Shown piece after piece: positions 15,558 to 40,913 of a stretch of DNA of 64,000 nt. Below the pieces are notes generated by a model. That model had not been told where the DNA came from, did no database searches, and was given only the letters and a program-made list of their open reading frames with translations. The DNA is from Fragilaria crotonensis (lineage: Eukaryota > Bacillariophyta > Fragilariophyceae > Fragilariales > Fragilariaceae): assembly GCA_022925895.1 (NCBI GenBank), contig JAKSYS010000129.1:48140-112139 (forward strand), written 5' to 3'. The stretch's first letter is position 1; each line of letters opens with the position of its first letter. The position numbers were made by a program, and so were the translations under genes.

Positions 15558-16576
15558 CGTTATGCTTGTTTGTTGTTCTGGCGAACGTTTCGACTATTCT
15601 TCCGCGACCCAGGCTGTGAAGGACTTGGCGCCTTTGTAGTCAAAATGACGACTACGGAAAAGTACTCTACGAGTAGAGTTCGGGAGGATGAGTTTTTAAC
15701 ATTTTCGGTGCTTTGCGTCTTATGTCATATGACCGCAGGTATTTCCAGACGATGACTGTCTCTCTAGCTAGAATGTCTCTTTTGATCGTGTTTAATGAGG
15801 TTCCGGAGTTCTTGCTCGCATGGTAATAAAATCATGTAGCATCTACGGAGACATGAGTCAAAGTTCCGGAACCCCCTCAGGACAGACTGAATCATCATCA
15901 TCATCAAGCCGAGAAAAGGAAGAGGTAGAGTACTCTAGCGTACAGTGAGTTAGTCTGTTGGATCAGATCCTTGAATCCACACAGATGTTCACATTCATGC
16001 TCATTATTTCTACAGGACTAGGATAACCTATTCCTAGTGGTACCGAGGGCATTAATGTCATTCTCCAGAATCGGAGCTTCCGCTTGATTGTGCAGAGTCC
16101 TTCAGATTGACTTGTGCATTGAGCTTGCACTGTCTGCTTGAAACACATTACTAGAAACCGGAGCTCAGAACATATCTCACACACCACAAACTTTACTGCT
16201 CTGATGGTTTAGAAATTTTTGCAATTGATAGCCACTCGCTTGCCAGAGAATGTCTCAAAGGTCGTCATCAATAGCGTGATTCATGACCTGTCTGGCTTTC
16301 CTGAAAACTGAGATCAAGATGGATGTACAGTATCATGTAATGTCAAGACGTATTTTGTATAATAATGCTGATAGGAGTAGATTATGCATACCGCACAATG
16401 TATAGCCTTGGATGCACTATGGACTATGGACTATTTACTATTTGTACTTGTACTTGTACTTTGTACTCCATCTAACATGAACGACAAACTAAAAGTATTA
16501 GTACTCCCTCACAGCTGTCGGCTCGCGAAGAACGAAAAGAAGAAGGACATGGCTCTTTACCAAAAATAGAACGTCT
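15558..16576. other. Intergenic, about 1 kb
   Basis: Upstream of the second sulfotransferase-like gene and downstream of the tRNA. It holds a short CATCAT microsatellite near 15894 and GTACTTGTACTT words near 16445. No gene is recognised. Confidence 0.45.
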
Positions 16577-16647
16577 TGCTCGCCTAGGTTTCGATCCTAG
16601 GACCTTTGGGTTATGAGCCCAACACGCTTCCTCTGCGCCAGCGAGCA
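16577..16647 (-). tRNA. tRNA-Met (CAT), elongator type
   Basis: A 71-nt cloverleaf on the minus strand. The acceptor stem TGCTCGC/GCGAGCA pairs perfectly. The D arm is GCGC/GCGT. The anticodon arm is TTGGG-CTCATAA-CCCAA with anticodon CAT. The T arm is CTAGG-ATCGAAA-CCTAG. The first pair is T-A, with no initiator-specific feature, so the elongator form is more likely. There is no intron and no encoded CCA. Confidence 0.93.
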
Positions 16648-17522: not shown

Positions 17523-20500
17523 TTAATACATAATGTGGCGACATAGTGCTCGACGACGGTCTGCAGTGAGTACCTTCGTAAATAGGTCGGCCAAGTTAGT
17601 CATGCCGTCCTCTTTTCCCACACGTATGATCTTCGCGGCAACAGCCTCGCGTACTGCATGATAATTGATTGCATTGTGCTTCTTTGCAAGCATTGATTCG
17701 GGAATAGTTGTGTTTTTCACGACACCGTTATTGTCGCAGAATATATTGGCCGGACCATCAATTGGCACGCCAAACATTCGGAGCTTATATCGCAACGCGA
17801 CAAGCATGTCCTTCGCAGCTCGAAGCGCGACAAATTCACTCCCAAAACTGGAGGATTCAACGGTATTTTGCCGTTTCGAAAACCAAATGATCGGCGCATT
17901 CTGAACGTAAATGATAATCCCAGTATGCGATCTTCGAGTAATAACATTTCCTGCGTGATTCGCATCAACAAAACATGATATATTCACACATTTACCTTTT
18001 GGTTCTGGCATGTTCGGGGGTAGTTCCTCACATACGTCCCCGTAAAAATCTCGCCAATCGGCATCAGAGTTGAACACACGTTCATCGATATCAGGGGTTT
18101 TCGGATCGAAAACAATTCGAGCTCCATTCTCATGCTTCTTCAAGTATGCGAAGATGTGGTATAATGCCTCAAGGTGACCGCGCCGTGGCAGTGCCTGATG
18201 TTGGGACAATTGCGATACTTCGACAAATATGTCGAGGCGTCCGAGTTCAATTGCCCATCGCAGTATTCCAATTAATTGAAGGAAACGCGACCCCATTTCG
18301 TCACTAAGTTCAGGAGTTACATCCAGCTCGGGTTTATAGCCGCTGGGGAATGGATTCCTCGCCGTTGACTTCAACTTCGCTTCCGGATCGTCTTCTGCAA
18401 TTAATGCTTCGACAACTTTGATGGCGTTCTTGACATAAGTCTTACTGCCCATGGCCCATTCCACTTTACCATTCGGCAATTGGACCTTCTCCATATTGGC
18501 TCCAAGATATATATCGGGCTCATGGACACTTTCCGGTTTGAGCTCGTACAATTTGCCCAATTCGTCCATAGTTTGTTTTGGTTCCTTCGCGAATATCAGG
18601 ATGTCATCAACGTATACCAGCACCATATCATAGTGCGTTCCGGCACTCGAATCCATACATCTGGATCTGCCTGTGTTGATGTAAAGTTCATATGACACAG
18701 CGTTGCCGCCAAGTCCGCACGCCAGGCAGCGCCTGATGATTTGAGTCCATATAGGGCACGCGTTACAATCAAGACTTTACCGCGGTCTTCGCCAGTTTCA
18801 ATGCCGCCTTCAAACCAAATCTTCTCACGGCACGATGCGTTTAAGTATGCATTAGTTACATCCCCCGCCAGCACGTCGAGGTCGTTCAGACCAGCAATCA
18901 GAAACGCCAGGCGTACACTGTCGCGCGATACCACGCTCGAGTAAGTTATTGATCCTGGCGTGTCGGTCGTGTGCCCTCCGGCAACAAATCTTGCCTTTCG
19001 GGTGAAATCCATTTTGACGTCGAATATCACATGACATCGAATTTCTTGAAAACCAATCATCGATGGCTCCTTTCCGCTTCGTGCTTGCGCGGGTGATATC
19101 CCGTCAGCGCTTTTCCACGCGACTTTCACCTTTGTCATCTCCTTTCCTAGTGCCTTGCGCCAGAAGTCGGTTCCAGTCTCTTCGTCAATCGTCAGGGCTT
19201 CTTCGACTGTCTTTGGCACACGTATGCCGAATTTGTGGGTCGTACGCCAATAGCGTTTGACCTTCGCAACAATGCGATTTCGCTTCCGCAGAACCGTATG
19301 TACCCACCAGTTAAACGCTGGCTCATTGGCAATTTTGTTTGCCACTGCATATTCTGCAACTTGAACAGGATAGGCGTCTTTTAAATCCTTCAATGGTAGC
19401 CAGTCCGAAGACCCGTCCTTCCACGAGACCAAAAGGGACCAGCCTCGGGTTGTCGGTTTCGGGATACGATTCCCATTACGACTTGTGGTGAAACCATCTG
19501 CGATTTGAATCGCCGAGTTGTCAGACCTGTGGTCAGTGATCTCGCTCAATAATTGATACTGATTTCCTTCAGAGTCAACCTGTGCATACATGCACTCTGC
19601 AATCACATTTGCGAAGTAGTTCTCAGTGGATCCATCGGTGAACTCCACAACGTATTCTCGGGTATCGAACAGGGGGTTGGAATGTGCACGACCAATCGGT
19701 TCGCCAGAGGTACCCTTTGCACGTTTGACCACACGGCCTTTGCGTTCGCTGCCGGTACCGACATCGAATATTAGTTCTGCATTCAAATACTTGTCAATTA
19801 CGTCGTCGTTGATGTCGTCGGCATCCAACGTGTCAGGGGTATCCATATCACCATAATCTTCATCGGTGCGTACGGTGCCACTCGGCACCTCATCAAACTC
19901 GTCTTGGATATAAAATCCGTCAGCTGCATTAACCATAAAGTTCTGATCTGACAGACGCTCGTCAACTGCGCGGTCGAAACTCTCGATTTCGGTTTTGACG
20001 TCATTGTTCAGGTAGTCGTCACGTACGACATGTTGTACCGTAGTTCGGGCAATTACATTGCCGGATTCAAGTAGTAGCCAATAGCATAGATCGCTCCCGA
20101 CCCGGTGGGCAACACCAAGCCATCGCGCGAGACGTCGCCCGCTGCCGTCGATTTCGATTTTCTTCTGGTCATAGTACCATACGCGATCGTAAAACTCAAA
20201 GTCGATCCACTCGGATATGTCTGGTGTCTCACCGGTGACAATCTCAATCCCGGTGCGCAGTTGTTGGCCACGAGGAATTCTGTTTAGAATGTTAGTCTCA
20301 TAGACCAGACCATAATCCCACAGACGAGGTGGGACTTTCCGCTTGAGCATGCGATTCCTCCATCGCTTCTTGAGCTCGCCGATTTCTCTCTCGGCCGCGT
20401 AATTCTGATTCGATCGTCCAACCTCAGATCGCTTTAACCTGATCTTCAAACGATTTACCTCCTTCATAAAGTCAGTCTTAGGACCAACAATTTCGGGAGC

Positions 20501-21482
20501 TCCATCAGACAATAAGGAGTCAGGAATGCCAACATCGTCGGCAAATTCGGTCAACGCCCGAGCGACTTTCGATTTCGAATCGAGAGGATGGACCGTGGTG
20601 AACGATCCGTTAGTGAATACTTGCGCGCACGTGTTACCCTGGATTGATATGACCTTCGAGAATAAGGTATCAGTGAACCAGTCCCCGTTTAGGCGTCGCC
20701 GGTTCAGGTGTAAGTGATCAACACGATATCTTCGATGCAACGGGTGAACCGCCGTTCTTACCCCGCGCTGGGTAGTTACCTGAAGGGTTCGCTTGGCCGT
20801 CTCGAGGCCAATATTCCATTGCGACTTAGATTCTCAAAGGTTACAGTCGAGTGTCGTTCGCTCGTGATCGTTGCGCTTATCCCACCGTGCGTCCCCGTAA
20901 GCGCAGAGGACACGAGAATAGCATTCGCATACAAAGAAGACACGCAACGCGGGTCAGAAGTGGGAAGATCGCCGTCGGGGTGCAGTCGAATGGGACCATA
21001 TATCCCGTCCAGCGGTCGATATACAGTCGACGGCACGCGCTGGATTCCGACGCGGTGCAGACATGTGCATGTCCGCGGGATTCCAAGTCGGCGAAGTAAT
21101 TTCGACAATCGGTAGATTCGACATTTCCCAATCAGTGGGGACGCGTGACTCGAATGAAAGATTCGGTCCCGAAACGGTAAGGGAATAAAAATGGAATCCA
21201 AATCAAGGCCAATCGGTCGGTGCGGATCCCATGGATCATCACAAACGCCGTAGCCATGGGCTCGGATCTGATGGGGTTGATTAAGGAGCAGTGTAAATCA
21301 CTGCCAAACCACAGCACTTGGTCAGCGACCAGGACGACAGAGTCGCCGGTTGTGGGACACGTGTACGTCGTAGCACACTTCGCAATCGGGACATCTGGCT
21401 TCGGTTGATACTCCGCAGAAAGGGAGAAACATTGCAGTACTCGCCCGAAAGTTCGAGCAAACGCCAATTCGGTCCAGCACAC
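17523..21482 (-). pseudogene. Copia pol (protease-integrase-RT-RNase H), frame interrupted
   Basis: Read from 21482 down. A protease-region segment with VLVADQVLWFGSDLHCSLIN continues in other frames to 20776. Then comes the zinc-binding pre-integrase block and integrase (ORF from 20740) with an SDGAPEIVG strand. Next is the reverse transcriptase: DVKMDF-x-RKARFVAGGH, SYSSVVSRDSVR-type block and ALYGLKSSGAAWR. The catalytic YVDD (VLVYVDDILIF) lies in the ORF that overlaps at 18698, so one base shift splits the RT. RNase H (CFVDANHAG, SSSFGSEFVALRAA, TKVLTADRRR) ends at 17523. At least three frame changes are present. Given the young LTRs, sequence error is as likely as decay. Confidence 0.8.
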
Positions 21483-21628
21483 GTGGTGTCAGCGTGGTTA
21501 TCGATCTCATTGATGGCAATGTTGCCAGGGGTTGGTTCATTGGGCTTATGGTGTGTGGGGCCCGTGCGCCTTGCACTTGAAATTAACGCGTGTGCCTGCG
21601 CCTGACGTGCACCACTGGCCTCTGCGAG

Positions 21629-23172
21629 TCAGGTGTTGTACGCGCCGCGACCGAAGCTACGACCGTTTTGGGAGCCACGCTCCGTTATGTCGGACACAAC
21701 CGACTGGTCAGCCGGCGCACTAGATGTATTCGTCGTCTCGTTGGAGTTCGGGTTCGCTGCAGATACACTGCTAGTCGTTCGATTTGTATTGCTCCCTTGG
21801 TAACTCTGGTCGCCTCTTCCGCGGCCACCACGGCCGCCTTCTCGCAACTGTATGACGTAGGAGCGCATAGAGCCAAGACGCTCCCATTCATCGGAAGTGA
21901 AATTCCGGTGAGGGTCAGTGATATCGACGTTATTCGCATATGTTCTGCGTTCGTTGCCACGCCCGCGTCCGCGACCGTCTCGTCCCCGTCCGTTGCTGCG
22001 ACCACCGCGTTGGCCACTACGACCGCCGCCTTGACGGGCCCTGCCACGGCCGCCACGCTGATCATTGGATCCCATTGCGCTGACATATCGGCGTTTGTTG
22101 CCCGAGTGGCGGTTGGCATAATCCAACTGGGCTGCGGCATGAATGCTCGAAATTAGTCCAGACAAGAACTCAACGGCCTTATCGAAGTTGGCGCGATAGT
22201 TCTGATAGACGTTGACCTTTGCAGACGTGATACTTGCGTCCGTAGAACGGATACCAAGAAGCATCTTGTCGACCATCTGCTTCTCAGTTAATTCCTCGCT
22301 CTTATCTTTTGACAATACATGGAAGTTCTCCTTGAGCTTCGTGACGAATTTCTCAAACGGGAACACCTTCTCGTCCTTATAATGCAAGCGAGAGATTTCC
22401 TCTTTAGCTTTTTCAACACGTTTGTTTAACTCTCCCGTGCCATCGTAATGCGCAACAAGCGCCAACCATGCTCTTCTGCCATTCGCAGTGCGATCGTAAC
22501 TTTGGATCCATGTCCAAGCATCGGACTTAATACAAGCCGATTTCAGTATCTGGAATACCAGTTTGTTGTCACGCTTGAAGTTTTCGCCTTCTAGTGGCAT
22601 CTGGAAGCGCCTCATCTCATCATCGTCGAGAAACAACTCGTCGGTGTAATCCCATTCAGGGCGTACGACATAGTCGATTGGGACCTTCGCGGCCCCATGA
22701 TTGCGCTTAGCTTGTTCACAAAGCCGATCTGCCAGTTATCCCAACCAGCATCGGTCTGGCACTTGCCGGGGTCAATTATGTCGATGTCAACCTTATCAAG
22801 GTTGTGGTCAGATTCCTTTCTCGCCATTGCTGCCAACATGACTTCTCGAGTCCACATCTCAGGCTGTGCCTGTAGGCCACGTTGTCGTGGTCTTTCACCC
22901 AATAGACTAAGGCCTGAAGCCTTTTGATTTGCATCGTTCAAGGATTACTCTCCCGGTAGCAGTTGGCCTTGAGGCCATTCGTTTAGCCATCTCCGAAACA
23001 TCAGGTCGCCGTTCATGGAGGCAAACGCTTCCATGGAGTCGAGTCCCTCAATATTAATGAAAGTTTCGCGATTAGCAGCATTTGCAATACCACAAATGGT
23101 AAGTACTTCATGAACAGGGTTTGGTGGTTCGGGTTCAGCAACAGCTGCGGCGACAACGGGTTCAGCATCCAT
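21629..23172 (-). pseudogene. Copia gag, frame interrupted
   Basis: The start ATG is at 23172 (MDAEPVV). An N-terminal GIANAANRETFINIEGLDS block is followed by an in-frame TAA at 22945. The middle part to about 22690 (MWTREVMLAAMARKE) and the main capsid-like part follow, the latter with EGENFKRDNKLVFQILKS and WIQSYDRTANGRRAW. The shift between them falls in a GGGG run near 22693. The C-terminal tail is Gly/Arg-rich (RGG/GRG repeats), as expected for nucleic-acid binding in place of a CCHC knuckle. Confidence 0.75.
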
Positions 23173-28011: not shown

Positions 28012-28152
28012 CAGTGTGCAGTGTGCAGTGTGCAGTGTGCAGTGTGCAGTGTGCAGTGTGCAGTGTGCAGTGTGCAGTGTGCAGTGTGCAGTGTGCAGTG
28101 TGCAGTGTGCAGTGTGCAGTGTGCAGTGTGCAGTGTGCAGTGTGCAGTGTGC
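28012..28152. repeat. 7-bp tandem repeat (CAGTGTG)n
   Basis: About 20 near-perfect copies of CAGTGTG. It abuts the second minisatellite directly and lies about 130 bp upstream of the start codon of the small membrane-protein gene. Confidence 0.97.
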
Positions 28153-28513
28153 GTGGCATGGCATGGCATGGCATGGCATGGCGTGGCATGGCGTGGCATG
28201 GCGTGGCATGGCGTGGCATGGCGTGGCGTGGCATGGCGTGGCATGGCGTGGCATGGCGTGGCATGGCGTGGCATGGCGTGGCATGGCGTGGCATGGCGTG
28301 GCATGGCGTGGCATGGCGTGGCATGGCGTGGCATGGCGTGGCATGGCGTGGCATGGCGTGGCATGGCGTGGCATGGCGTGGCATGGCGTGGCGTGGCGTG
28401 GCGTGGCGTGGCATGGCGTGGCATGGCGTGGCATGGCGTGGCATGGCGTGGCATGGCGTGGCATGGCGTGGCATGGCGTGGCATGGCGTGGCGTGGTGTG
28501 GCGTGGCATGGCG
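28153..28513. repeat. 5/10-bp tandem repeat (GTGGC/ATGGC)
   Basis: Starts as a run of CATGG pentamers, then about 33 decamers GTGGCATGGC, interrupted by blocks of GTGGC only. Because neither strand contains stop codons in most frames it produces long ORFs of Met-Ala-Trp-His type in every frame. These are not genes. Confidence 0.97.
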
Positions 28514-28973
28514 TCATGAAAAAGATAGAGAGGTCACTACTTTAGGTACTCGTACTGGTGCCTTGTATTGTACTGATCTGGTGTGCGCAGTGCACAGTGC
28601 ACAACAGTTCTCTTGGAATGTACCCGAAGCAGCTAGTACTCCAGTAGTACAGTACATTGTATTCAACCGTAGCAGTGGGAGATGAATCAAAAGGTGGAAC
28701 TGTGATGCATGTACATACATGTAAATCATACTTTCTCTGTATTAGAAATGTACTATGCGGTACCCAAGTACTTGTACCGGTACTACTCTTCACCAATGCG
28801 CTGCACGCTTATTACTACCAGGTAATGGTATTCACAGGAAGGTCCGGCCCATGCACGTTCCAGCCGTACCGTTAGGGGCAGTTGAGTTTGCGCGCCAGCC
28901 TTGCTCCGATTTGCATGATGCGAGAATTTTAGCAATCGTAATGATCCATCCGAGCCGGCAAGGTTGCTGCATC
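28514..28973. other. Unassigned spacer with GTAC words
   Basis: About 460 bp between the minisatellite and the motif cluster. It has a GTGCGCAGTGCACAGTGCAC stretch near 28582 and GGTACCCAAGTACTTGTACC near 28758. No gene is seen. Confidence 0.4.
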
Positions 28974-29296
28974 GTAAGCAAATTTTTCTTGACAGTAAGC
29001 AAAATCAGTAGGCAAATTATGCCGGTAAGCAAATTTTGTAAGCAAATTTTTTCTGTAAGCAAATTTGATTTTCGTAAGCAAATTCTTCTTTGCTGTAAGT
29101 AAATTTTACTTAGGTGTTTGAAAATTGGTATGTTTTTCCGTAGAAAAGACAGTCCCCGTAAGCAAATTTAATCTCCCAGTAAGCAAATTTTGTAAGCAAA
29201 TTTCTGCTTACAATAGATTTGCTGCTTATGGTAAGCAAATTCCGTCAGCAATTTCATTCCGTAAGCAATTTTTTTTTCGCTGTAAGCAAATTTTCT
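28974..29296. repeat. Cluster of about 15 GTAAGCAAATTT motifs with variable spacers
   Basis: The 12-mer GTAAGCAAATTT, or a 1-2 base variant, recurs at about 28974, 28995, 29008, 29025, 29038, 29055, 29074, 29095, 29158, 29179, 29192, 29231, 29260 and 29282. One inverted copy is near 29200. Spacers are unequal, mostly 0-12 bp, and unrelated. All but the inverted copy point the same way. TTTGCG(CG)CCAGCC words occur outside both ends (near 28889 and 29339). No protein is encoded. Confidence 0.85.
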
Positions 29297-30230
29297 GACA
29301 GACGTCAGCCGTGTCACCACCACGCCGGCACATCCAATTTTGCGCCAGCCAGACATCGATCGGAACTTGTTTCCCTCCCGGCGGGCGCGCATACTTCCTT
29401 TATTCAGGACTTCGCCCGTACTGCCGGACCTTCCAGTTGTGTACTGTACTACGTAGTTTAGCGTTTAGCGTAGGATTGTACAGTACTACCTCTTTGCAGT
29501 ACCTGGTACGCAGTAACAGTATACTTTCAAAATGGTATGATAAACGTATGCATACAGTACCAAAGTAAGGGTGCATTGGGGTAACCCTGATTTTCACGAG
29601 TTCTCAGATACCGGGTACTCTAGCCAAGTACTACCGTACTCCACTACTCCACTACTCCAGTGCTCCGGTCCGCAGTCCTCACTACTCCTGTACTGCGTCA
29701 ACCAGCAAAGGAAGAACAAGCATATAAACATGGTGTCTGGATTAGAATTCTTTTGCCTTAAAGGCACACTTGTTGACAGTTTTCTTTAAGGTTGAACAAA
29801 TAGATAAGATGATGGGTATGCTATGCAGCTATTGTTGTGATGTAAAATCATGAACAAGGTGATATGATTTGTCAAGTTTTCATTTTTTGAGTTTTTCCTT
29901 GACATGGCATCAGGACAGGTGAGTCACTCAAATTGAGTCCAATTTACAAAATCAAGTGGGTATGACTTTTTTGCATGTTACACATTCATGTCAAGCAAAT
30001 GTATGTGTTGTTATGAGTCTGCTGTTGTGGAAGTGGTTCTTGAGTCAGAAAGGAACACATTCGAATTGCTGGTGATCTGAGCAACAGGAATATTTTGGAG
30101 TTTGTGGTGAAACTCATGCTTTTTGCAATTGACACTGGTTCAATTGAATTAGTAGCCAGTGCTGGTAGTTCTTTGGAATGTGTCAAAGGATAAAAATGAG
30201 TTGTCAACAAAATTTTTATTCAAAAGGGAC

Positions 30231-30272
30231 TGTGACTGTGACTGTGACTGTGACTGTGACTGTGACTGTGAC
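30231..30272. repeat. (TGTGAC)7 microsatellite in array copy 1
   Basis: Seven perfect units of TGTGAC. The same position in copies 2, 3 and 4 has three units. Confidence 0.95.
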
Positions 30273-32206
30273 CATGCCTGTTGAGTTGTTTTTTGCTGGT
30301 GATGTTAGACTTGGCAAAACGTATGTAGTGGATCCTCACACCTTGTTCACAAGCTTGCTGGAACATCAGTCTGACTAATTTAACACTGTGATTTCTTTTA
30401 CTTGTTACAGTAGTCAGCAATTAAACTACAAAGATCAAATTCACGCGAGCAGGAAAAATCCCGAATTTAATGTGTTCTAACTTGTGAACGGTCACTCCTC
30501 ACCAAAAACAAGCTACTATTACAGTAACACCATGTGTTTTAGGGTGTACTACAAAATGCTAGGAAGTCAAGACATAAATCTTCCTGAATGAATACAATCA
30601 AATCACCAATTTCTCAATCTGTCCAGGTACTGTGGTAGTTTGATTTGTCCAGATACTCTATCCATGCTTGTACTGCTGGAGTTCTTGGAGTAATAAAGTA
30701 CTGTACTCCAAATAATTTTCTTATCCTACATTCAGCTCTGACTGTCACAACACCTCAGGAGTACTAGCTAACTACTTCCCATTTCCAGTTCAACCCTCCT
30801 GTATGACCTTTTGCATAAAATTGTCAACAATGACTGAACCTGGCTGTCACATATGTTAGTCTTGTGGAAATCATGATTTTCAAGCTTCAATGCTGTACTT
30901 ATATAGACTTTTGTGTTGATAGTGAGAGGGAGGCACTTAATAGATTGCAACCAGCCACAGTCCCCCTGCTTCTTAACAGAGAGAACAACAAGGTACAGAA
31001 CACCCTCTTTTCTATGTATTGGAACCATGGACCAGCATCACTAGAGCCAGCTCACAAGAAGGGTTATTTCAAGGGTCTCTACTATCTTGTGGACAGTAGT
31101 ACTATGGATCAGCTTCTCTCACACAGAAGCTAATCAAGAGATTAGTGGAGGGTGGGCCATATGACCATGTAGGAAACCCTCACCAGAAATGATATGTACT
31201 TGTGGCTGGTGGGTGTGATTGATTCTGGTATCAGATGTAAGAACACTGGTTCTTGAGAGTGGTGCAGCAAGTGGGAGGAAGACTCAAACACAAAGACTTG
31301 AAGGGGTGTGATGCTGCTTGTAATGCATCTGTTATTGATGCCATGGTACAATGAGCCAATTCTTTTTGTGCGTTTGTGCCTTGGAGCTTGGTACTTGCCA
31401 AGACCTCAAGTACTTCTGTTGATGCAGCAGCCAGTCTTGCTGTGGGAATTTAAAGATAGTAGATAAGCCATGACAGTCGCTCTAGAATATATGCTGCTGG
31501 TGCTGCTTTGAAAAGCCAAGAATGGAAGACCAGGATAAACTTCCTGGCATGCACAACTCTACTGAGAGATCCAAAAAGGCATACATGTCTTATGAGAAAT
31601 GAAGACTACATTGTGTAAGATCTACACCAAGGAAAGTAATCTGGGTCAGGCTGTTTTGATTATGTTTGCAGTGTAATTTACTTAGATTATATTTTTGAAA
31701 GACTTACTGGTTCTTATCTTTGATTGATTTATGACTTATAATGGATGGAGTGTTGACAAACAACAAATAAGCTCACAATCCTACAGAGAAACAAAGGAAA
31801 AGCAGAGGAGTATAAATAATACTGTATTACCAGGTATTCGAGTACCTGGTACTGTTTTATTGTATTTGCGTTCAGTATAGTACTTGTAATCCTGGTATGT
31901 CATACATACTACTGTACCACGACAATAAAGTCAACATGCCGGTAGGTCTGTAGTTTTCATATCACAACTACAGCAGACGTGTAGAGCATGAGATGTGTTG
32001 CGATGTACTACGTACACGGAGTACTTGTACCAAGTACCAGGTACCAAGACAGCAGGTGTTATTCAGGAAGCAAGAGGTCTAATTTTTCGATATTCTCCTT
32101 CAGTACGGTAAATGTGCGCTGGGTGTGATGCATACTCTAGGAATTGATCCAGTAGCGTGGACTTGGTACATCTGGCTACGTTTTGTACGATTGATACTAG
32201 GCCTAC

Positions 32207-32450
32207 GGGGTTGCACAACCGGTTGCAAAAAAAATGGGTACGGGCACATTTCCGGTGTTTTGCAACCGAAGTAGTATTTTCAACTCCCTCCGGTATGTGT
32301 ATACGACAGGGACCTGTAGAACTTGCAGGTACTGTGACAAAAACGCAGTGCGGAACACCAGGATCTTTTGCAACCCAGTTGCACGTAGGGTTGCAAAATT
32401 TCTACGAGAGAACGGCGTAGGTTTGCAACCCAATCCGTGTTTTTTGCAAC
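32207..32450. repeat. GGTTGCA/TGCAACC motif cluster in the array unit (copy 1 end)
   Basis: About nine occurrences of GGTTGCA or TGCAACC-type words in 244 bp, in both orientations, with unrelated spacers. Repeated at 35105-35345 and 37982-38225; in copy 4 only the first two motifs remain (from about 40874). A loose inverted pair (GGGTTGCACAACC near the left, GGTTTGCAACCC near the right) exists, but no clean target duplication. Confidence 0.75.
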
Positions 32451-32481
32451 TCGAATTAGTCAATCACAGCAGTACCAGGTA

Positions 32482-35376
32482 CAGTACCAAAGTAAGGGTG
32501 CATTGGGGTAACCCTGATTTTCACGAGTTCTCAGATACCGGGTACTCTAGCCAAGTACTACCGTACTCCACTACTCCACTACTCCAGTGCTCCGGTCCGC
32601 AGTCCTCACTACTCCTGTACAGCGTCAACCAGCAAAGGAAGAACAAGCATATAAACATGGTGTCTGGATTAGAATTCTTTTGCCTTAAAGGCACACTTGT
32701 TGACAGTTTTCTTTAAGGTTGAACAAATAGATAAGATGATGGGTATGCTATGCAGCTATTGTGATGTAAAATCATGAAGATGATATGATTTGTCAAGTTT
32801 TCATTTTTTGAGTTTTTCCTTAACATGGCATCAGGACAGGTGAGTCACTCAAATTGAGTCCAATTTACAAAATCAAGTGGCTGGGTATGACTTTTTTGCA
32901 TGTTACACATTCATGTCAAATGTATGTGTTGTTATGAGTCTGCTGTTGCTTGTGGAAGTGGTTCTTGAGTCAGAAAGGAACACATTTGAATTGCTGGTGA
33001 TCTGAACAACAGGAATATCTTGGAGTTTGTGGTGAAACTCATGCTTTTTGCAACTGACACTGGTTCAATTGAATTAGTAGCCAGTGCTGGTAGTTCTTGG
33101 GAATGTGCCATAGGATAAAAAATGAGTTGAAATTTTTTATTCAAAAGTGACTGTGACTGTGACTGTGACCATGCCTGTTGAGTTGTTTTTTGCTGGTGAT
33201 GTTAGACTTGGCAAAACGTATGTAGTGGATCCTCACACCTTCACAAGCTTGCTTGCTGGAAAATCAGTCTGACTAATTTAACACTGTGATTTCATTTACT
33301 TGGTGTTACAGTAGTCAGCAATTAAACTACAAAGATAAAATTCACGCGAGCAGGAAAAATCCCGAATTTAATGTGTTCTAACTTGTGAACGGTCACTCCT
33401 CACCAAAAACAAGCTACTAGTACAGTAACACCATGTGTTTTAGGGTGTACTACAATATGCTAGGTAGTCAATACATAAATCCTTCCTGAATGAATACAAT
33501 CAAATCACCAATTTCTCAATCTGTCCAGGTACTGTGGTAGTTTGATTTGTCCAGATACTCTGTCCGTGCTTGTACTGCTAAAGTTCTTGGAGTAATAAAG
33601 TACTGTACTCCAAATAATTTTCTTATCCTACATTCAGCTCTGACTGCCACAACACCTCAGGAGTACTAGCTAACTCTTCCGATTTCCAGTTCAACCCTCC
33701 TCCTGTATGACCTTTTGCCTAAAATTGTCAACAATGACTGAACCTGGCTGTCACATACGTTAGTCTTGTGGAAATCATGATTTTCAAGCTTCAATGCTGT
33801 ATTTATACAGACTTTTGTGTTGATAGTGAGAGGAGGCACTTAATAGATTGCAACCAGCCACAGTCCCCTGCTTCTTAACAGAGAGAACAACAAGGTACAC
33901 AACACCCTCTTTTCTATGTAGTGGAACCATGAACCAGCATCACTAGAGCCAGCTCACAAGAAGGGTTATTTCAAGGGTCTCTACTAGTATCTTGTGGACA
34001 GTACTATGGATCAGCTTCTCTCACACAGAAGCTAATCAAGAGATTAGTGGAGGGTGGGCCATATGACCATGTAGGAAACCCTCACCAGAAATGTTATGTA
34101 CTTGTGGCTGGTGGGTGTGATTGATTCTGCTGGTATCAGATGTGTGAACACTGGTTCTTGAGAGTGGTGCAAGTGGGAGGAAGACTCAAACACAAAGACT
34201 TGAAGGGGTGTGATGCTTGTAATGCATCTGTTATTGATGCCATGGTACAATGAGCCAATTCTTTTTGTGCGTTTGTGCCTTGGAGCTTGGTACTTGCCAA
34301 GACCTCAAGTACTTCTGTTGATGCAGCCAGTCTTACTGTGGGAATTTAAAGATAGTAGAGGATAAGCCATGCATGACAGTCGCTCTAGAATATATGCTGC
34401 TGGTGCTGCTTTGAAAAACCAAGAATGGAAGACCAGGATAAACTTCCTGGCATGCACAACTCTACTGAGAGATCCAAAAAGGCATACATGTCTTATGAGA
34501 AATGAAGACTACAATGTGTTAGATCTACACCAAGGAAAGTAAGCTGGGGTCAGGCTGTTATGATTATGTTTGCAGTGTAATTTACTTAGATTGTCATTTT
34601 TGAAAGACTTACTGGTTCTTATCTTTGATTGATTTATGACTTATAATGGAGTGTTGACAAACAACAAATAAGCTCACAATCCTACTACAGAGAAACAAAC
34701 AAAGAAAAAGCAGAGGAGTATAAATAATACTGTATTACCAGGTATTCGAGTACCTGGTACTGTTTTATTGTATTTGCGTTCAGTATAGTTATCCTGGTAC
34801 ATACTACTACTGTACCACGACAATAAAGTCAACATGCCGGTAGGTCTGTAGTTTTCATATCACAACTACAGCAGACGTGTAGAGCATGAGATGTGTTGCG
34901 ATGTACTACGTACACGGAGTACTTGTACCAAGTACCAGGTACCAAGACAGCAGGTGTTATTCAGGAAGCAAGAGGTCTAATTTTTCGATATTCTCCTTCA
35001 GTACGGTAAATGTGCGCTGGGTGTGATGCATACTCTAGGAATTGATCCAGTAGCGTGGACTTGGTACATCTGGCTACGTTTTGTACGATTGATACTAGGC
35101 CTACGGGGTTGCACAACCGGTTGCAAAAAAAATGGGTACGGGCACATTTCCGGTGTTTTGCAACCGAAGTAGTATTTTCAACTCCCTCCGGTATGTGTAT
35201 ACGACAGGGACCTGTAGAACTTGCAGGTACTGTGACAAAAACGCAGTGCGGAACACCAGGATCTTTTGCAACCCAGTTGCACGTAGGGTTGCAAAATTTC
35301 TACGAGAACGGCGTAGGTTTGCAACCCAATCCGTGTTTTTGCAACTCGAATTAGTCAATCACAGCAGTACCAGGTA
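32482..35376. repeat. Array unit, copy 2 (subtype B)
   Basis: 2895 bp. Subtype-B states shared with copy 3: ACTTGGTGTTACAG, CTGCTAAAGTTCTTGG, GCCTAAAATTG, AATGTGTTAGATC. Confidence 0.92.
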
Positions 35377-38256
35377 CAGTACCAAAGTAAGGGTGCATTG
35401 GGGTAACCCTGATTTTCACGAGTTCTCAGATACCGGGTACTCTAGCCAAGTACTACCGTACTCCACTACTCCACTACTCCAGTGCTCCGTCCGCAGTCCT
35501 CACTACTCCTGTACAGCGTCAACCAGCAAAGGAAGAACAAGCATATAAACATGGTGTCTGGATTAGAATTCTTTTGCCTTAAAGGCACACTTGTTGACAG
35601 TTTTCTTTAAGGTTGAACAAATAGATAGATGATGGGTATGCTATGCAGCTATTGTGATGTAAAATCATGAAGATGATATGATTTGTCAAGTTTTCATTTT
35701 TTGAGTTTTTCCTTAACATGGCATCAGGACAGGTGAGTCACTCAAATTGAGTCCAATTTACAAAATCAAGTGGCTGGGTATGACTTTTTTGCATGTTACA
35801 CATTCATGTCAAATGTATGTGTTGTTATGAGTCTGCTGTTGCTTGTGGAAGTGGTTCTTGAGTCAGAAAGGAACACATTTGAATTGCTGGTGATCTGAAC
35901 AACAGGAATATCTTGGAGTTTGTGGTGAAACTCATGCTTTTTGCAACTGACACTGGTTCAATTGAATTAGTAGCCAGTGCTGGTAGTTCTTGGGAATGTG
36001 CCATAGGATAAAAAATGAGTTGAAATTTTTTATTCAAAAGTGACTGTGACTGTGACTGTGACCATGCCTGTTGAGTTGTTTTTTGCTGGTGATGTTAGAC
36101 TTGGCAAAACGTATGTAGTGGATCCTCACACCTTCACAAGCTTGCTTGCTGGAAAATCAGTCTGACTAATTTAACACTGTGATTTCATTTACTTGGTGTT
36201 ACAGTAGTCAGCAATTAAATTACGAAGATAAAATTCACACGAGCAGGAAAAATCCCAATTTAATGTGTTCTAACTTGTGAACGGTCACTCCTCACCAAAA
36301 ACAAGTTACTAGTACAGTAACACCATGGGTTTTAGGGTGTGCTACAATATGCTAGGTAGTCAATACATAAATCCTTCCTGAATGAATACAATCAAATCAC
36401 CAATTTCTCAATCTGTCCAGGTACTGTGGTAGTTTGATTTGTCCAGATACTCTGTCCGTGCTTGTACTGCTAAAGTTCTTGGAGTAATAAAGTACTGTAC
36501 TCCAAATAATTTTCTTATCCTACATTCAGCTCTGACTGCCACAACACCTCAGGAGTACTAGCTAACTCTTCCGATTTCCAGTTCAACCCTCCTCCTGTAT
36601 GACCTTTTGCCTAAAATTGTCAACAATGACTGAACCTGGCTGTCACATACGTTAGTCTTGTGGAAATCATGATTTTCAAGCTTCAATGCTGTATTTATAC
36701 AGACTTTTGTGTTGATAGTGAGAGGAGGCACTTAATAGATTGCAACCAGCCACAGTCCCCTGCTTCTTAACAGAGAGAACAACAAGGTACACAACACCCT
36801 CTTTTCTATGTAGTGGAACCATGAACCAGCATCACTAGAGCCAGCTCACAAGAAGGGTTGTTTCAAGGGTCTCTACTATCTTGTGGACAGTACTATGGAT
36901 CAGCTTCTCTCACACAGAAGCTAATCAAGAGATTAGTGGAGGGTGGGCCATATGACCATGTAGGAAACCCTCACCAGAAATGTTATGTACTTGTGGCTGG
37001 TGGGTGTGATTGATTCTGGTATCAGATGTATGAGCACTGTTTCTTGAGAGTGGTGCAAGTGGGAGGAAGACTCAAACACAAAAGACTTGAAGGGGTGTGA
37101 TGCTGCTTGTAATGCATCTGTTATTGATGCCATGGTGCAATGAGCCAATTCTTTTTGTGCATTTGTGCCTTGGAGCTTGGTACTTGCCAAGACCTCAAGT
37201 ACTTCTGTTGATGCAGCCAGTCTTACTGTGGGAATTTAAAGATAGTAGAGGATAAGCCATGCATGACAGTCGCTCTAGAATATATGCTGCTGGTGCTGCT
37301 TTGAAAAACCAAGAATGGAAGACCAGGATAAACTTCCTGGCATGCACAACTCTACTGAGAGATCCAAAAAGGCATACATGTCTTATGAGAAATGAAGACT
37401 ACAATGTGTTAGATCTACACCAAGGAAAGTAAGCTGGGGTCAGGCTGTTATGATTATGTTTGCAGTGTAATTTACTTAGATTGTCATTTTTGAAAGACTT
37501 ACTGGTTCTTATCTTTGATTGATTTATGACTTATAATGGAGTGTTGACAAACAACAAATAAGCTCACAATCCTACTACAGAGAAACAAACAAAGGAAAAG
37601 CAGAGGAGTATAAATAATACTGTATTACCAGGTACTCGAGTACCTGGTACTGTTTTATTGTATAGTATAGTTATCCTGGTACATACTACTGTACCACGAC
37701 AATAAAGTCAACATGCCGGTAGGTCTGTAGTTTTCATATCACAACTACAGCAGACGTGTAGAGCATGAGATGTGTTGCGATGTACTACGTACACGGAGTA
37801 CGTACCAAGTACCAAGTACCAAGACAGCAGGTGTTATTCAGGAAGCAAGAGGTCTAATTTTTCGATATTCTCCTTCAGTACGGTAAATGTGCGCTCGGTG
37901 TGATGCATACTCTAGGAATTGATCCAGTAGCGTGGACTTGGTACATCTGGCTACGTTTTGTACGATTAATACTAGGCCTACGGGGTTGCACAACCGGTTG
38001 CAAAAAAAATGGGTACGGGCACATTTCCGGTGTTTTGCAACCGAAGTAGTATTTTCAACTCCCTCCGGTATGTGTATACGACAGGGACCTGTAGAACTTG
38101 CAGGTACTGTGACAAAAACGCAGTGCGGAACATCAGGATCTTTTGCAACCCAGTTGCACGTAGGGTTGCAAAATTTCTACGAGAGAACGGCGTAGGTTTG
38201 CAACCCAATCCGTGTTTTTTGCAACTCGAATTAGTCAATCACAGCAGTACCAGGTA
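35377..38256. repeat. Array unit, copy 3 (subtype B)
   Basis: 2880 bp, very close to copy 2. Private differences include GAATTTAATG reduced to CAATTTAATG, and single-base changes in homopolymers. Confidence 0.92.
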
Positions 38257-40913
38257 CAGTACCAAAGTAAGGGTGCATTGGGGTAACCCTGATTTTCACG
38301 AGTTCTCAGATACCGGGTACTCTAGCCAAGTACTACCGTACTCCACTACTCCACTACTCCAGTGCTCCGGTCCGCAGTCCTCACTACTCCTGTACAGCGT
38401 CAACCAGCAAAGGAAGAACAAGCATATAAACATGGTGTCTGGATTAGAATTCTTTTGCCTTAAAGGCACACTTGTTGACAGTTTTCTTTAAGGTTGAACA
38501 AATAGATAAGATGATGGGTATGCTATGCAGCTATTGTGATGTAAAATCATGAAGATGATATGATTTGTCAAGTTTTCATTTTTTGAGTTTTTCCTTAACA
38601 TGGCATCAGGACAGGTGAGTCACTCAAATTGAGTCCAATTTACAAAATCAAGTGGCTGGGTATGACTTTTTTGCATGTTACACATTCATGTCAAATGTAT
38701 GTGTTGTTATGAGTCTGCTGTTGCTTGTGGAAGTGGTTCTTGAGTCAGAAAGGAACACATTCGAATTGCTGGTGATCTGAACAACAGGAATATCTTGGAG
38801 TTTGTGGTGAAACTCATGCTTTTTGCAACTGACACTGGTTCAATTGAATTAGTAGCCAGTGCTGGTAGTTCTTGGGAATGTGCCATAGGATAAAAAATGA
38901 GTTGAAATTTTTTATTCAAAAGTGACTGTGACTGTGACTGTGACCATGCCTGTTGAGTTGTTTTTTGCTGGTGATGTTAGACTTGGCAAAACGTATGTAG
39001 TGGATCCTCACACCTTGTTCACAAGCTTGCTGGAACATCAGTCTGACTAATTTAACACTGTGATTTCATTTACTTGTTACAGTAGTCAGCAATTAAACTA
39101 CAAAGATAAAATTCACGCGAGCAGGAAAAATCCCGAATTTAATGTGTTCTAACTTGTGAACGGTCACTCCTCACCAAAAACAAGCTACTAGTACAGTAAC
39201 ACCATGTGTTTTAGGGTGTACTACAATATGCTAGGTAGTCAATACATAAATCTTCCTGAATGAATACAATCAAATCACCAATTTCTCAATCTGTCCAGGT
39301 ACTGTGGTAGTTTGATTTGTCCAGATACTCTGTCCATGCTTGTACTGCTGGAGTTCTTGGAGTAATAAAGTACTGTACTCCAAATAATTTTCTTATCCTA
39401 CATTCAGCTCTGACTGTCACAACACCTCAGGAGTACTAGCTAACTCTTCCCATTTCCAGTTCAACCCTCCTCCTGTATGACCTTTTGCATAAAATTGTCA
39501 ACAATGACTGAACCTGGCTGTCACATACGTTAGTCTTGTGGAAATCATGATTTTCAAGCTTCAATGCTGTATTTATACAGACTTTTGTGTTGATAGTGAG
39601 AGGAGGCACTTAATAGATTGCAACCAGCCACAGTCCCCTGCTTCTTAACAGAGAGAACAACAAGGTACACAACACCCTCTTTTCTATGTAGTGGAACCAT
39701 GAACCAGCATCACTAGAGCCAGCTCACAAGAAGGGTTATTTTGAGGGTCTCTACTAGTATCTTGTGGACAGTACTATGGATCAGCTTCTCTCACACAGAA
39801 GCTAGTCAAGAGATTAGTGGAGGGTGGGCCATATGACCATGTAGGAAACCCTCACCAGAATGTTATGTACTTGTGGCTGGTGGGTGTGATTGATTCTGCT
39901 GGTATCAGATGTATGAACACTGGTTCTTGAGAGTGGTGCAAGTGGGAGGAAGACTCAAACACAAAAGACTTGAAGGGGTGTGATGCTGCTTGTAATGCAT
40001 CTGTTATTGATGCCATGGTACAATGAGCCAATTCTTTTTGTGCGTTTGTGCCTTGGAGCTTGGTACTTGCCAAGACCTCAAGTACTTCTGTTGATGCAGC
40101 CAGTCTTACTGTGGGAATTTAAAGATAGTAGAGGATAAGCCATGCATGACAGTAGCTCTAGAATATATGCTGCTGGTGCTGCTTTGAAAAACCAAGAATG
40201 GAAGACCAGGATAAACTTCCTGGCATGCACAACTCTACTGAGAGATCCAAAAAGGCATACATGTCTTATGAGAAATGAAGACTACATTGTGTAAGATCTA
40301 CACCAAGGAAAGTAATCTGGGGTCAGGCTGTTATGATTATGTTTGCAGTGTAATTTACTTAGATTATATTTTTGAAAGACTTACTGGTTCTTATCTTTGA
40401 TTGATTTATGACTTATAATGGATGGAGTGTTGACAAACAACAAATAAGCTCACAATCCTACAGAGAAACAAAGGAAAAGCAGAGGAGTATAAATAATACT
40501 GTATTACCAGGTATTCGAGTACCTGGTACTGTTTTATTGTATTTGCGTTCAGTATAGTATATCCTGGTACATACTACTGTACCACGACAATAAAGTCAAC
40601 ATGCCGGTAGGTCTGTAGTTTTCATATCACAACTACAGCAGACGTGTAGAGCATGAGATGTGTTGCGATGTACTACGTACACGGAGTACTTGTACCAAGT
40701 ACCAGGTACCAAGACAGCAGGTGTTATTCAGGAAGCAAGAGGTCTAATTTTTCGATATTCTCCTTCAGTACGGTAAATGTGCGCTGGGTGTGATGCATAC
40801 TCTAGGAATTGATCCAGTAGCGTGGACTTGGTACATCTGGCTACGTTTTGTACGATTGATACTAGGCCTACGGGGTTGCACAACCGGTTGCAAAAAAAAT
40901 GGGTACGGGCACA
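38257..40913. repeat. Array unit, copy 4 (incomplete, mosaic)
   Basis: 2657 bp. It shares copies 2/3 states in the first ~650 bp (for example AACATGGCATC, (TGTGAC)3). It then shares copy 1 states (TTGTTCACAAGC, CTGCTGGAGTTC, ACATTGTGTAAGATC, GATGGAGTGTTG). It lacks the terminal GGTTGCA-rich block. Confidence 0.9.

What the first reader, a model, noticed from the sequence alone, without database searches (positions are those of the whole stretch)
29555..40913. 11.4-kb tandem array of a 2.9-kb non-coding unit with two subtypes and a mosaic copy
Seen: four head-to-tail units (starts 29555, 32482, 35377, 38257). Copies 2 and 3 share private states. Copy 4 looks like 2/3 in its first ~650 bp and like copy 1 thereafter. 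This is the signature of unequal exchange or gene conversion between subtypes. No conserved ORF explains it. Long-unit satellites of this size are not a standard component of compact diatom genomes, so its role (structural, long non-coding RNA, replication-related) is open.
Basis: partly seen in the sequence, partly recalled or inferred. Interest (0 to 1): 0.7.

Follow-up and report, generated by a model that had tools for sequence, protein, structure and literature searches.

The report
Stacked copies of a non-coding transposon
The four repeated blocks are copies of a mobile element without genes that also sits at many other places in this genome and tends to stack head to tail, probably because each insertion recreates the short sequence it likes to insert into.

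Summary
The array is real (29553-40913): three full units and one lacking its first ~234 bp. In the right frame the unit is a ~2.9-kb mobile element, ACATTTCC...GGGC[ACA]. The same genome (62.1 Mb, 881 contigs) holds it as single copies and as arrays of 2, 3, 3 and 5. The 12 tandem junctions read have one shared ACA; most single copies sit in T[ACA]GTA. Three copies at unrelated loci have no substitution between them; one is the right unit of a pair whose left unit differs by 13. On one contig a copy joins, at the same ACA, a second family that shares little but the ends. Six homologous end motifs read TTGCAAC in family I, TTGCCAC in family II. No conserved gene or Rfam match was found. Best reading: a non-autonomous transposon moved in trans by a site-specific recombinase through a joined-ends circle; its right junction recreates ACA|GTA, so copies stack, and unequal exchange homogenises arrays. 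The enzyme is unknown: empty-site and transposase searches did not complete (genome machine busy). Copy 4's likeness to copy 1 is mostly shared ancestral states.

The parts
29553..32248 (+). element copy 1, lacking its first ~234 bp; left border lies exactly at the internal TACAGTA site
32246..35146 (+). element copy 2, full length (ACATTTCC...GGGCACA), 2901 bp counting both ACA
35144..38023 (+). element copy 3, full length (2880 bp)
38021..40913 (+). element copy 4, full length (2893 bp); right end GGGCACA followed by GTAC
32246..32248 (+). shared ACA at junction copy 1/copy 2 (others at 35144-35146 and 38021-38023)
32246..32481 (+). left module (~230 bp), the part shared with family II and with other relatives; also at the start of copies 3 and 4
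32260..32266 (+). end motif TTGCAAC, first of four forward sites in copy 2 (others start 32368, 32423, 32444); reverse sites start 32390 and 35120
   Evidence: positions in the rotated unit, converted
32480..32486 (+). internal TACAGTA, a perfect match to the preferred target; the equivalent point is the left border of copy 1
35084..35146 (+). right end of copy 2 with the inverted end motif GGTTGCAAAA; no stable hairpin predicted

Best explanation
The unit is a non-autonomous transposon (family I). SHOWN: exact ends; a preferred insertion context T[ACA]GTA in one orientation; one shared ACA at the tandem junctions read; dispersed copies, three of them without substitutions between them; a second family that shares little but the ends and is stacked on the first at one locus. 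INFERRED: a protein encoded elsewhere binds the TTGCAAC sites near both ends, joins the ends into a circle (GGGC-ACA-TTTCC) and recombines it into TACA|GTA targets, as tyrosine or serine site-specific recombinases do. The right junction of most insertions again reads ACA|GTA, the preferred target, so the next element can insert there and a head-to-tail array grows. Unequal crossing-over and gene conversion then multiply and homogenise inner units. No host function is proposed.
For: Own-genome search: 71 matches, with full or nearly full units on many contigs; arrays C509 x3, C372 x3, C562 x2 and C504 x5. 12 of 12 homotypic junctions read are GGGC-ACA-TTTCC (8, 4). T precedes ACA in 13 of 15 left flanks; GTA follows ACA in 12 of 16 right flanks and GT in 15 of 16, against P(GTA|ACA)=0.029 and P(T before ACA)=0.24 in the window outside the array (rows include family II and fragments, and some share a flank, so they are not all independent). 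C562b, C485 and C218 differ pairwise by 0 substitutions and 3-7 small indels; C562a differs from C562b by 13 substitutions; their available 600-bp flanks gave no match to each other (C562 begins at its contig's start and has no left flank). Family I is joined to family II at one ACA on C364. All six end sites read TTGCAAC in 22 of 23 family I units with both ends (C88 has five) and none of 27 units has TTGCCAC there; the two family II copies with both ends read have TTGCCAC at all six homologous sites. Relatives may also lie in tandem on C449: two left modules 2,364 bp apart and one match across the junction, from tables only.
Against: No recombinase gene was found; the family searches and the empty-site search did not complete, so it is not proved that one ACA is lost on insertion. 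C383 breaks the target rule (right flank aag), C761, C710 and C230 have gtt, and C710 and C383 have A on the left. C562b could have been made identical to C485 and C218 by gene conversion rather than insertion. Some arrays look locally expanded (C509 a-c differ by 1.8-3.2 per 1000), so insertion is not needed for every unit. C509 and C372 share the right but not the left flank, C659 and C761 the left but not the right, which the model does not explain. The left ends fold better than shuffles as single strands (z -1.77 and -5.03), which fits a rolling-circle enzyme as well.
Confidence: 0.55

Rival explanations
1. Rolling-circle (HUH) transposon of the Helitron2/Helentron kind: nicks at TACA|TTT and GGCACA|GTA, joined-ends circle, insertion at TACA|GTA without target duplication; tandem copies by insertion next to, or replication around, a circle.
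For: No terminal inverted repeats; the element could start with T; inverted motif placed asymmetrically near both ends; left 126-127 nt fold better than shuffles, z -1.77 (9 of 200 shuffles as good) in family I and -5.03 (0 of 200) in family II; a short palindrome GGTTGCACAACC near the right end of family I (by eye); tandem copies known for Helitrons and seen in one fungal case (passages, PMC5148889). It equally explains a junction with one ACA and a fixed orientation.
Against: No stable hairpin predicted at the right end in the one copy per family folded: z +1.29 and +1.24, 189 and 183 of 200 shuffles fold as well. The first ~52-56 nt of the left ends do not stand out (z 0.07 and -0.49). No TC start or CTRR end. 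The motif lies 8-11 bp from the left end, not 0-2 bp as in Helitron2 (passages, PMC3627910).
Confidence: 0.27
2. DDE cut-and-paste element with a fixed 3-bp ACA target duplication.
For: ACA on both sides of the copies listed except the truncated window copy 1; inverted end motifs.
Against: ACA is not a palindrome yet keeps one orientation relative to the element, and the terminal bases differ (TTTCC and, read inward, GCCCG), so no terminal inverted repeat is seen.
Confidence: 0.1
3. A true satellite that grew only by unequal exchange and was scattered by segmental duplication.
For: Homogeneous inner units in C504; C509 and C372 share a right flank over at least 630 bp at 96.5%.
Against: Single copies with unrelated flanks but the same ends, the heterotypic junction, the preferred target.
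Confidence: 0.05
4. Assembly artefact (one unit, falsely repeated).
For: Long reads could not be examined; the contig C660, 99.5% identical to the right flank, stops 1.7 kb short of the array.
Against: The units differ: 53 substitutions and 31 indels between copies 1 and 2, 17 and 12 between copies 2 and 3; four other arrays exist.
Confidence: 0.03

Closest known systems
Crypton transposons (tyrosine recombinase; CryptonS in oomycetes and a diatom)
   Same: No terminal inverted repeats; short direct repeats at the ends of fungal and stramenopile members, thought to be recombination substrates; proposed circular intermediate; non-autonomous derivatives known (passages of PMC3212892)
   Different: Direct repeat is 3 bp (ACA), not 4-6 bp; most CryptonS ends are TATGG; no recombinase found here; stacking is not mentioned in the passages seen
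Helitron2 / Helentron / HINE elements
   Same: Non-coding members, asymmetric inverted motifs near the ends, no clear target duplication, tandem copies reported (passages of PMC3627910, PMC4067079, PMC5148889, PMC7492417)
   Different: No stable 3' hairpin predicted, target TACA|GTA rather than T-rich, motif farther from the left end; inner tandem copies complete here, whereas those of Helitrons are often cut at the 3' end (passage of PMC7492417)
IS607-type serine-recombinase elements
   Same: No terminal inverted repeats, no target duplication (passages of PMC3627910); very short core and repeated end sites are recalled
   Different: No serine recombinase or TnpB/Fanzor gene found (the search did not complete); target longer than the core

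Membership tests
Crypton | encodes, or shares ends with an element that encodes, a tyrosine recombinase | not tested
   family search PF12012 did not complete
Crypton | terminal direct repeats of 4-6 bp (fungal and stramenopile members; animal ones have none) | tested here: not met
   3-bp ACA only
Crypton | no terminal inverted repeats | tested here: met
   by eye
Helitron (canonical) | 5'-TC and CTRR-3' ends, insertion between A and T | tested here: not met
   ends TTTCC / GGCACA, target TACA|GTA
Helitron2/Helentron | hairpin near the 3' end | tested here: not met
   one copy per family folded as DNA: z +1.29 (family I) and +1.24 (family II); family I has a 12-bp palindrome there that is not predicted to fold
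Helitron2/Helentron | hairpin at the 5' end | tested here: inconclusive
   left ~126 nt z -1.77 and -5.03, first ~55 nt z 0.07 and -0.49
Helitron2/Helentron | asymmetric terminal inverted repeats, 0-2 bp from the 5' end and 20-30 bp from the 3' end | tested here: inconclusive
   inverted motif 8-11 bp from the left end; 15-21 bp (family I) and 32 bp (family II) from the right end
Helitron2/Helentron | RepHel-encoding partner with the same ends | not tested
   PF14214 search did not complete
IS607-like | serine recombinase partner | not tested
   PF00239 search did not complete
satellite DNA | occurs essentially as tandem arrays | tested here: not met
   single copies at many loci
diatom centromere-like DNA | very low GC (recalled: below about 33%) | tested here: not met
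   lowest of the 500-bp steps over the array 36.6%

The most novel reading that the evidence does not exclude
A group of transposons that matches neither Helitron, Crypton nor DDE types and whose target (TACA|GTA) is rebuilt at its own right end, so that elements of the same and of different families stack into arrays; each family has its own recombinase, whose change of specificity is recorded as a one-letter switch (TTGCAAC to TTGCCAC) in all six end sites at once.
Probability: 0.2. Interest if true: 0.7.

Novelty: new variant of a known kind. Interest (0 to 1): 0.42.

Why it matters
One genome shows what look like successive stages of a transposon turning into a satellite-like array: single copies, a pair of unlike copies, a pair of unlike families, and arrays of 3-5 units, one with homogenised centre. 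The six-site switch between families offers a handle on how a transposase and its binding sites change together.

Tried and rejected
Coding gene: Pfam scan of four ORFs gave one hit, E 0.17, below its cut-off; no clear 3-periodicity of substitutions between two family II copies, and 39 of their 58 indels are not multiples of three. A left-end open stretch shared by 16 of 27 units was not tested for selection. Structured RNA: no Rfam hit in the element. Other allele of the array: C660's contig ends at window 42602. A left-module-only element on C844: rejected; C844 and C500 look like two sides of one copy broken by another transposon. That copy may be at the same site as C88's, but only 104 bp (left) and 78 + 145 bp (right) of flank match. 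Autonomous partner at C689/C387: only left modules with a small inverted-repeat element inside. In one search the line comparing C659 and C761 left flanks used the wrong side; redid it. In print: the listings of searches showed no title or abstract start describing this element; no wider claim is made.

Full report
OBSERVATION. Four head-to-tail units are present. A BLAST with a query cut at the true ends places them at 29553-32248 (from element position 235 on), 32246-35146, 35144-38023 and 38021-40913 (right ends). Neighbours share three bases, ACA. Copies 1 and 2 differ by 53 substitutions and 31 indels, copies 2 and 3 by 17 and 12.

DISPERSED. Searching the window's own assembly (G000; 62.1 Mb, 881 contigs; window = C37:48140-112139) with one unit gave 71 matches. 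Full or nearly full copies lie on C509 (three in tandem), C372 (three), C562 (two), C504 (five) and singly on C88, C485, C218, C659, C761, C364, C710, C383 and C59 (the last lacking its right end); C844 and C500 seem to hold two parts of one further copy, C230 and C765 fragments. The tool says that counts are lower bounds.

ENDS AND TARGET. Copies with a left end start ACATTTCC (ACATTTAC in C59); copies with a right end finish GGGCACA. T precedes ACA in 13 of 15 left flanks; GTA follows in 12 of 16 right flanks and GT in 15 of 16; in the window outside the array GTA follows ACA at 2.9%. The rows include three family II left ends and two family II right ends (C684, and C364's, which is the far end of the mixed pair). 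Rows sharing a flank (C509/C372, C88/C500, C88/C844, C659/C761) are not independent, and C383 does not fit. The 12 homotypic junctions read all have one ACA (8, 4). Copy 1 of the window begins at an internal TACAGTA that 25 of 25 units with a left end carry at position 227-242; most units have two further TACAGTA near 1040-1340. Copy 1 may be a deletion between two TACA sites or a start at a cryptic end.

MOBILITY. C562b, C485 and C218 have no substitutions between them (3-7 indels), although their 600-bp flanks gave no match to each other where both exist. C562b's neighbour C562a differs by 13 substitutions. Insertion of a young copy beside an older one gives this; gene conversion is an alternative. 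On C364 a family I copy runs, through one ACA, into a second family. Family II is also seen on C51, C648 and C684; it ends GGCACA|GTA on C364 and C684, the other right ends were not read. In a permissive comparison of one copy of each family only the left ~230 bp align well (69%), besides reverse matches of 30 and 46 bp; the right ends look alike by eye.

COORDINATED MOTIF CHANGE. In copy 2 TTGCAAC lies at 15, 123, 178, 199 (forward) and 145, 2875 (reverse); in family II the homologous places carry TTGCCAC (15, 133, 189, 209; 156; 2402 in C364, 2480 in C684). Six such sites are kept in 22 of 23 family I units with both ends, five in C88, and none of 27 has TTGCCAC there. Outside these sites copy 2 has two more TTGCAAC; C364's family II copy has three more TTGCCAC and one TTGCAAC, C684's three more TTGCCAC. 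I infer a family-specific binding protein.

ARRAY EVOLUTION. In C504 inner units b, c, d differ by 1.0-2.7 per 1000, edges a and e by 5.9-14.7 (e over 1,736 bases): typical of unequal exchange. In the window, states polarised with 23 outside rows give: copy 1 alone 28, 2+3 15, 2+3+4 8, 3 alone 6, 1+2+4 4 (all at 2500-2846), 1+4 3, 4 alone 3, and one each for 2, 2+4, 3+4, 1+2+3 and all four (sites where the outside rows vary were dropped). Copy 4 is therefore not a strong mosaic of copy 1 and copies 2/3. No 2+3-only change lies before 742, which could be conversion or chance (about 4% if 15 changes fell evenly, my estimate).

CODING AND RNA. No conserved gene was found: no accepted Pfam hit in four ORFs, no clear periodicity in family II, no Rfam hit. 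The longest open stretch lies in the same left-end frame in 16 of 27 units. GC per 500 bp over the array is 36.6-48.4%.

MECHANISM. One orientation of a non-palindromic core, no terminal inverted repeat, junctions with one core and family-specific subterminal sites point to site-specific recombination by a trans-acting enzyme. A rolling-circle enzyme remains possible: the left ends fold better than shuffles (z -1.77 and -5.03), but the right ends do not (z +1.29 and +1.24; one copy per family). The right junction ACA|GTA equals the preferred target, which would explain stacking of the same and of different families. The enzyme is unknown and the tests that would name it did not complete.

COMPARISON. 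Only passages were read: PMC3212892, PMC3627910, PMC5148889, PMC4067079, PMC7492417. Fungal and stramenopile Cryptons have 4-6-bp direct repeats and Helitron2 a 3' hairpin; neither was met, so the element is filed under none.

Noticed in passing
window 28835-29436: ~600-bp element with inverted ends (about GGAAGGTCCGGC, by eye) and many GTAAGCAAATTT repeats; 40 further full-length matches at 96-98% in the genome (lower bound).
   Followed up: partly
window 28012-28512: Two minisatellites side by side: CAGTGTG x20 and GCGTGGCATG x37.
   Followed up: no
window 17523-22735, minus strand: Three long frames that look like a Ty1/copia retrotransposon (by eye).
   Followed up: no
window 16576-16647, minus strand: tRNA gene (Rfam).
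   Followed up: no
L058 (C844) and L013 (C500): A copy seems split by another transposon with inverted ends CATAAACCATATAGTGGGAC and a CTAG repeat (by eye).
   Followed up: partly
L061 (C689), L062 (C387): Family-I-like left modules hold a small inverted-repeat element whose end contains GAATGCTTAATGCACTAACG.
   Followed up: no
L011, L014, L016, L018 around element position 311-348; L015: An 8-bp repeat is expanded in several copies, and C659 has a 1.9-kb insert at the same place.
   Followed up: partly
C449:113017-115480: Two related left modules 2,364 bp apart and a match across a right-end/left-end junction: perhaps a third stacking family.
   Followed up: no
C509/C372 and C659/C761: Pairs of loci share one flank of the element but not the other; unexplained.
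   Followed up: partly
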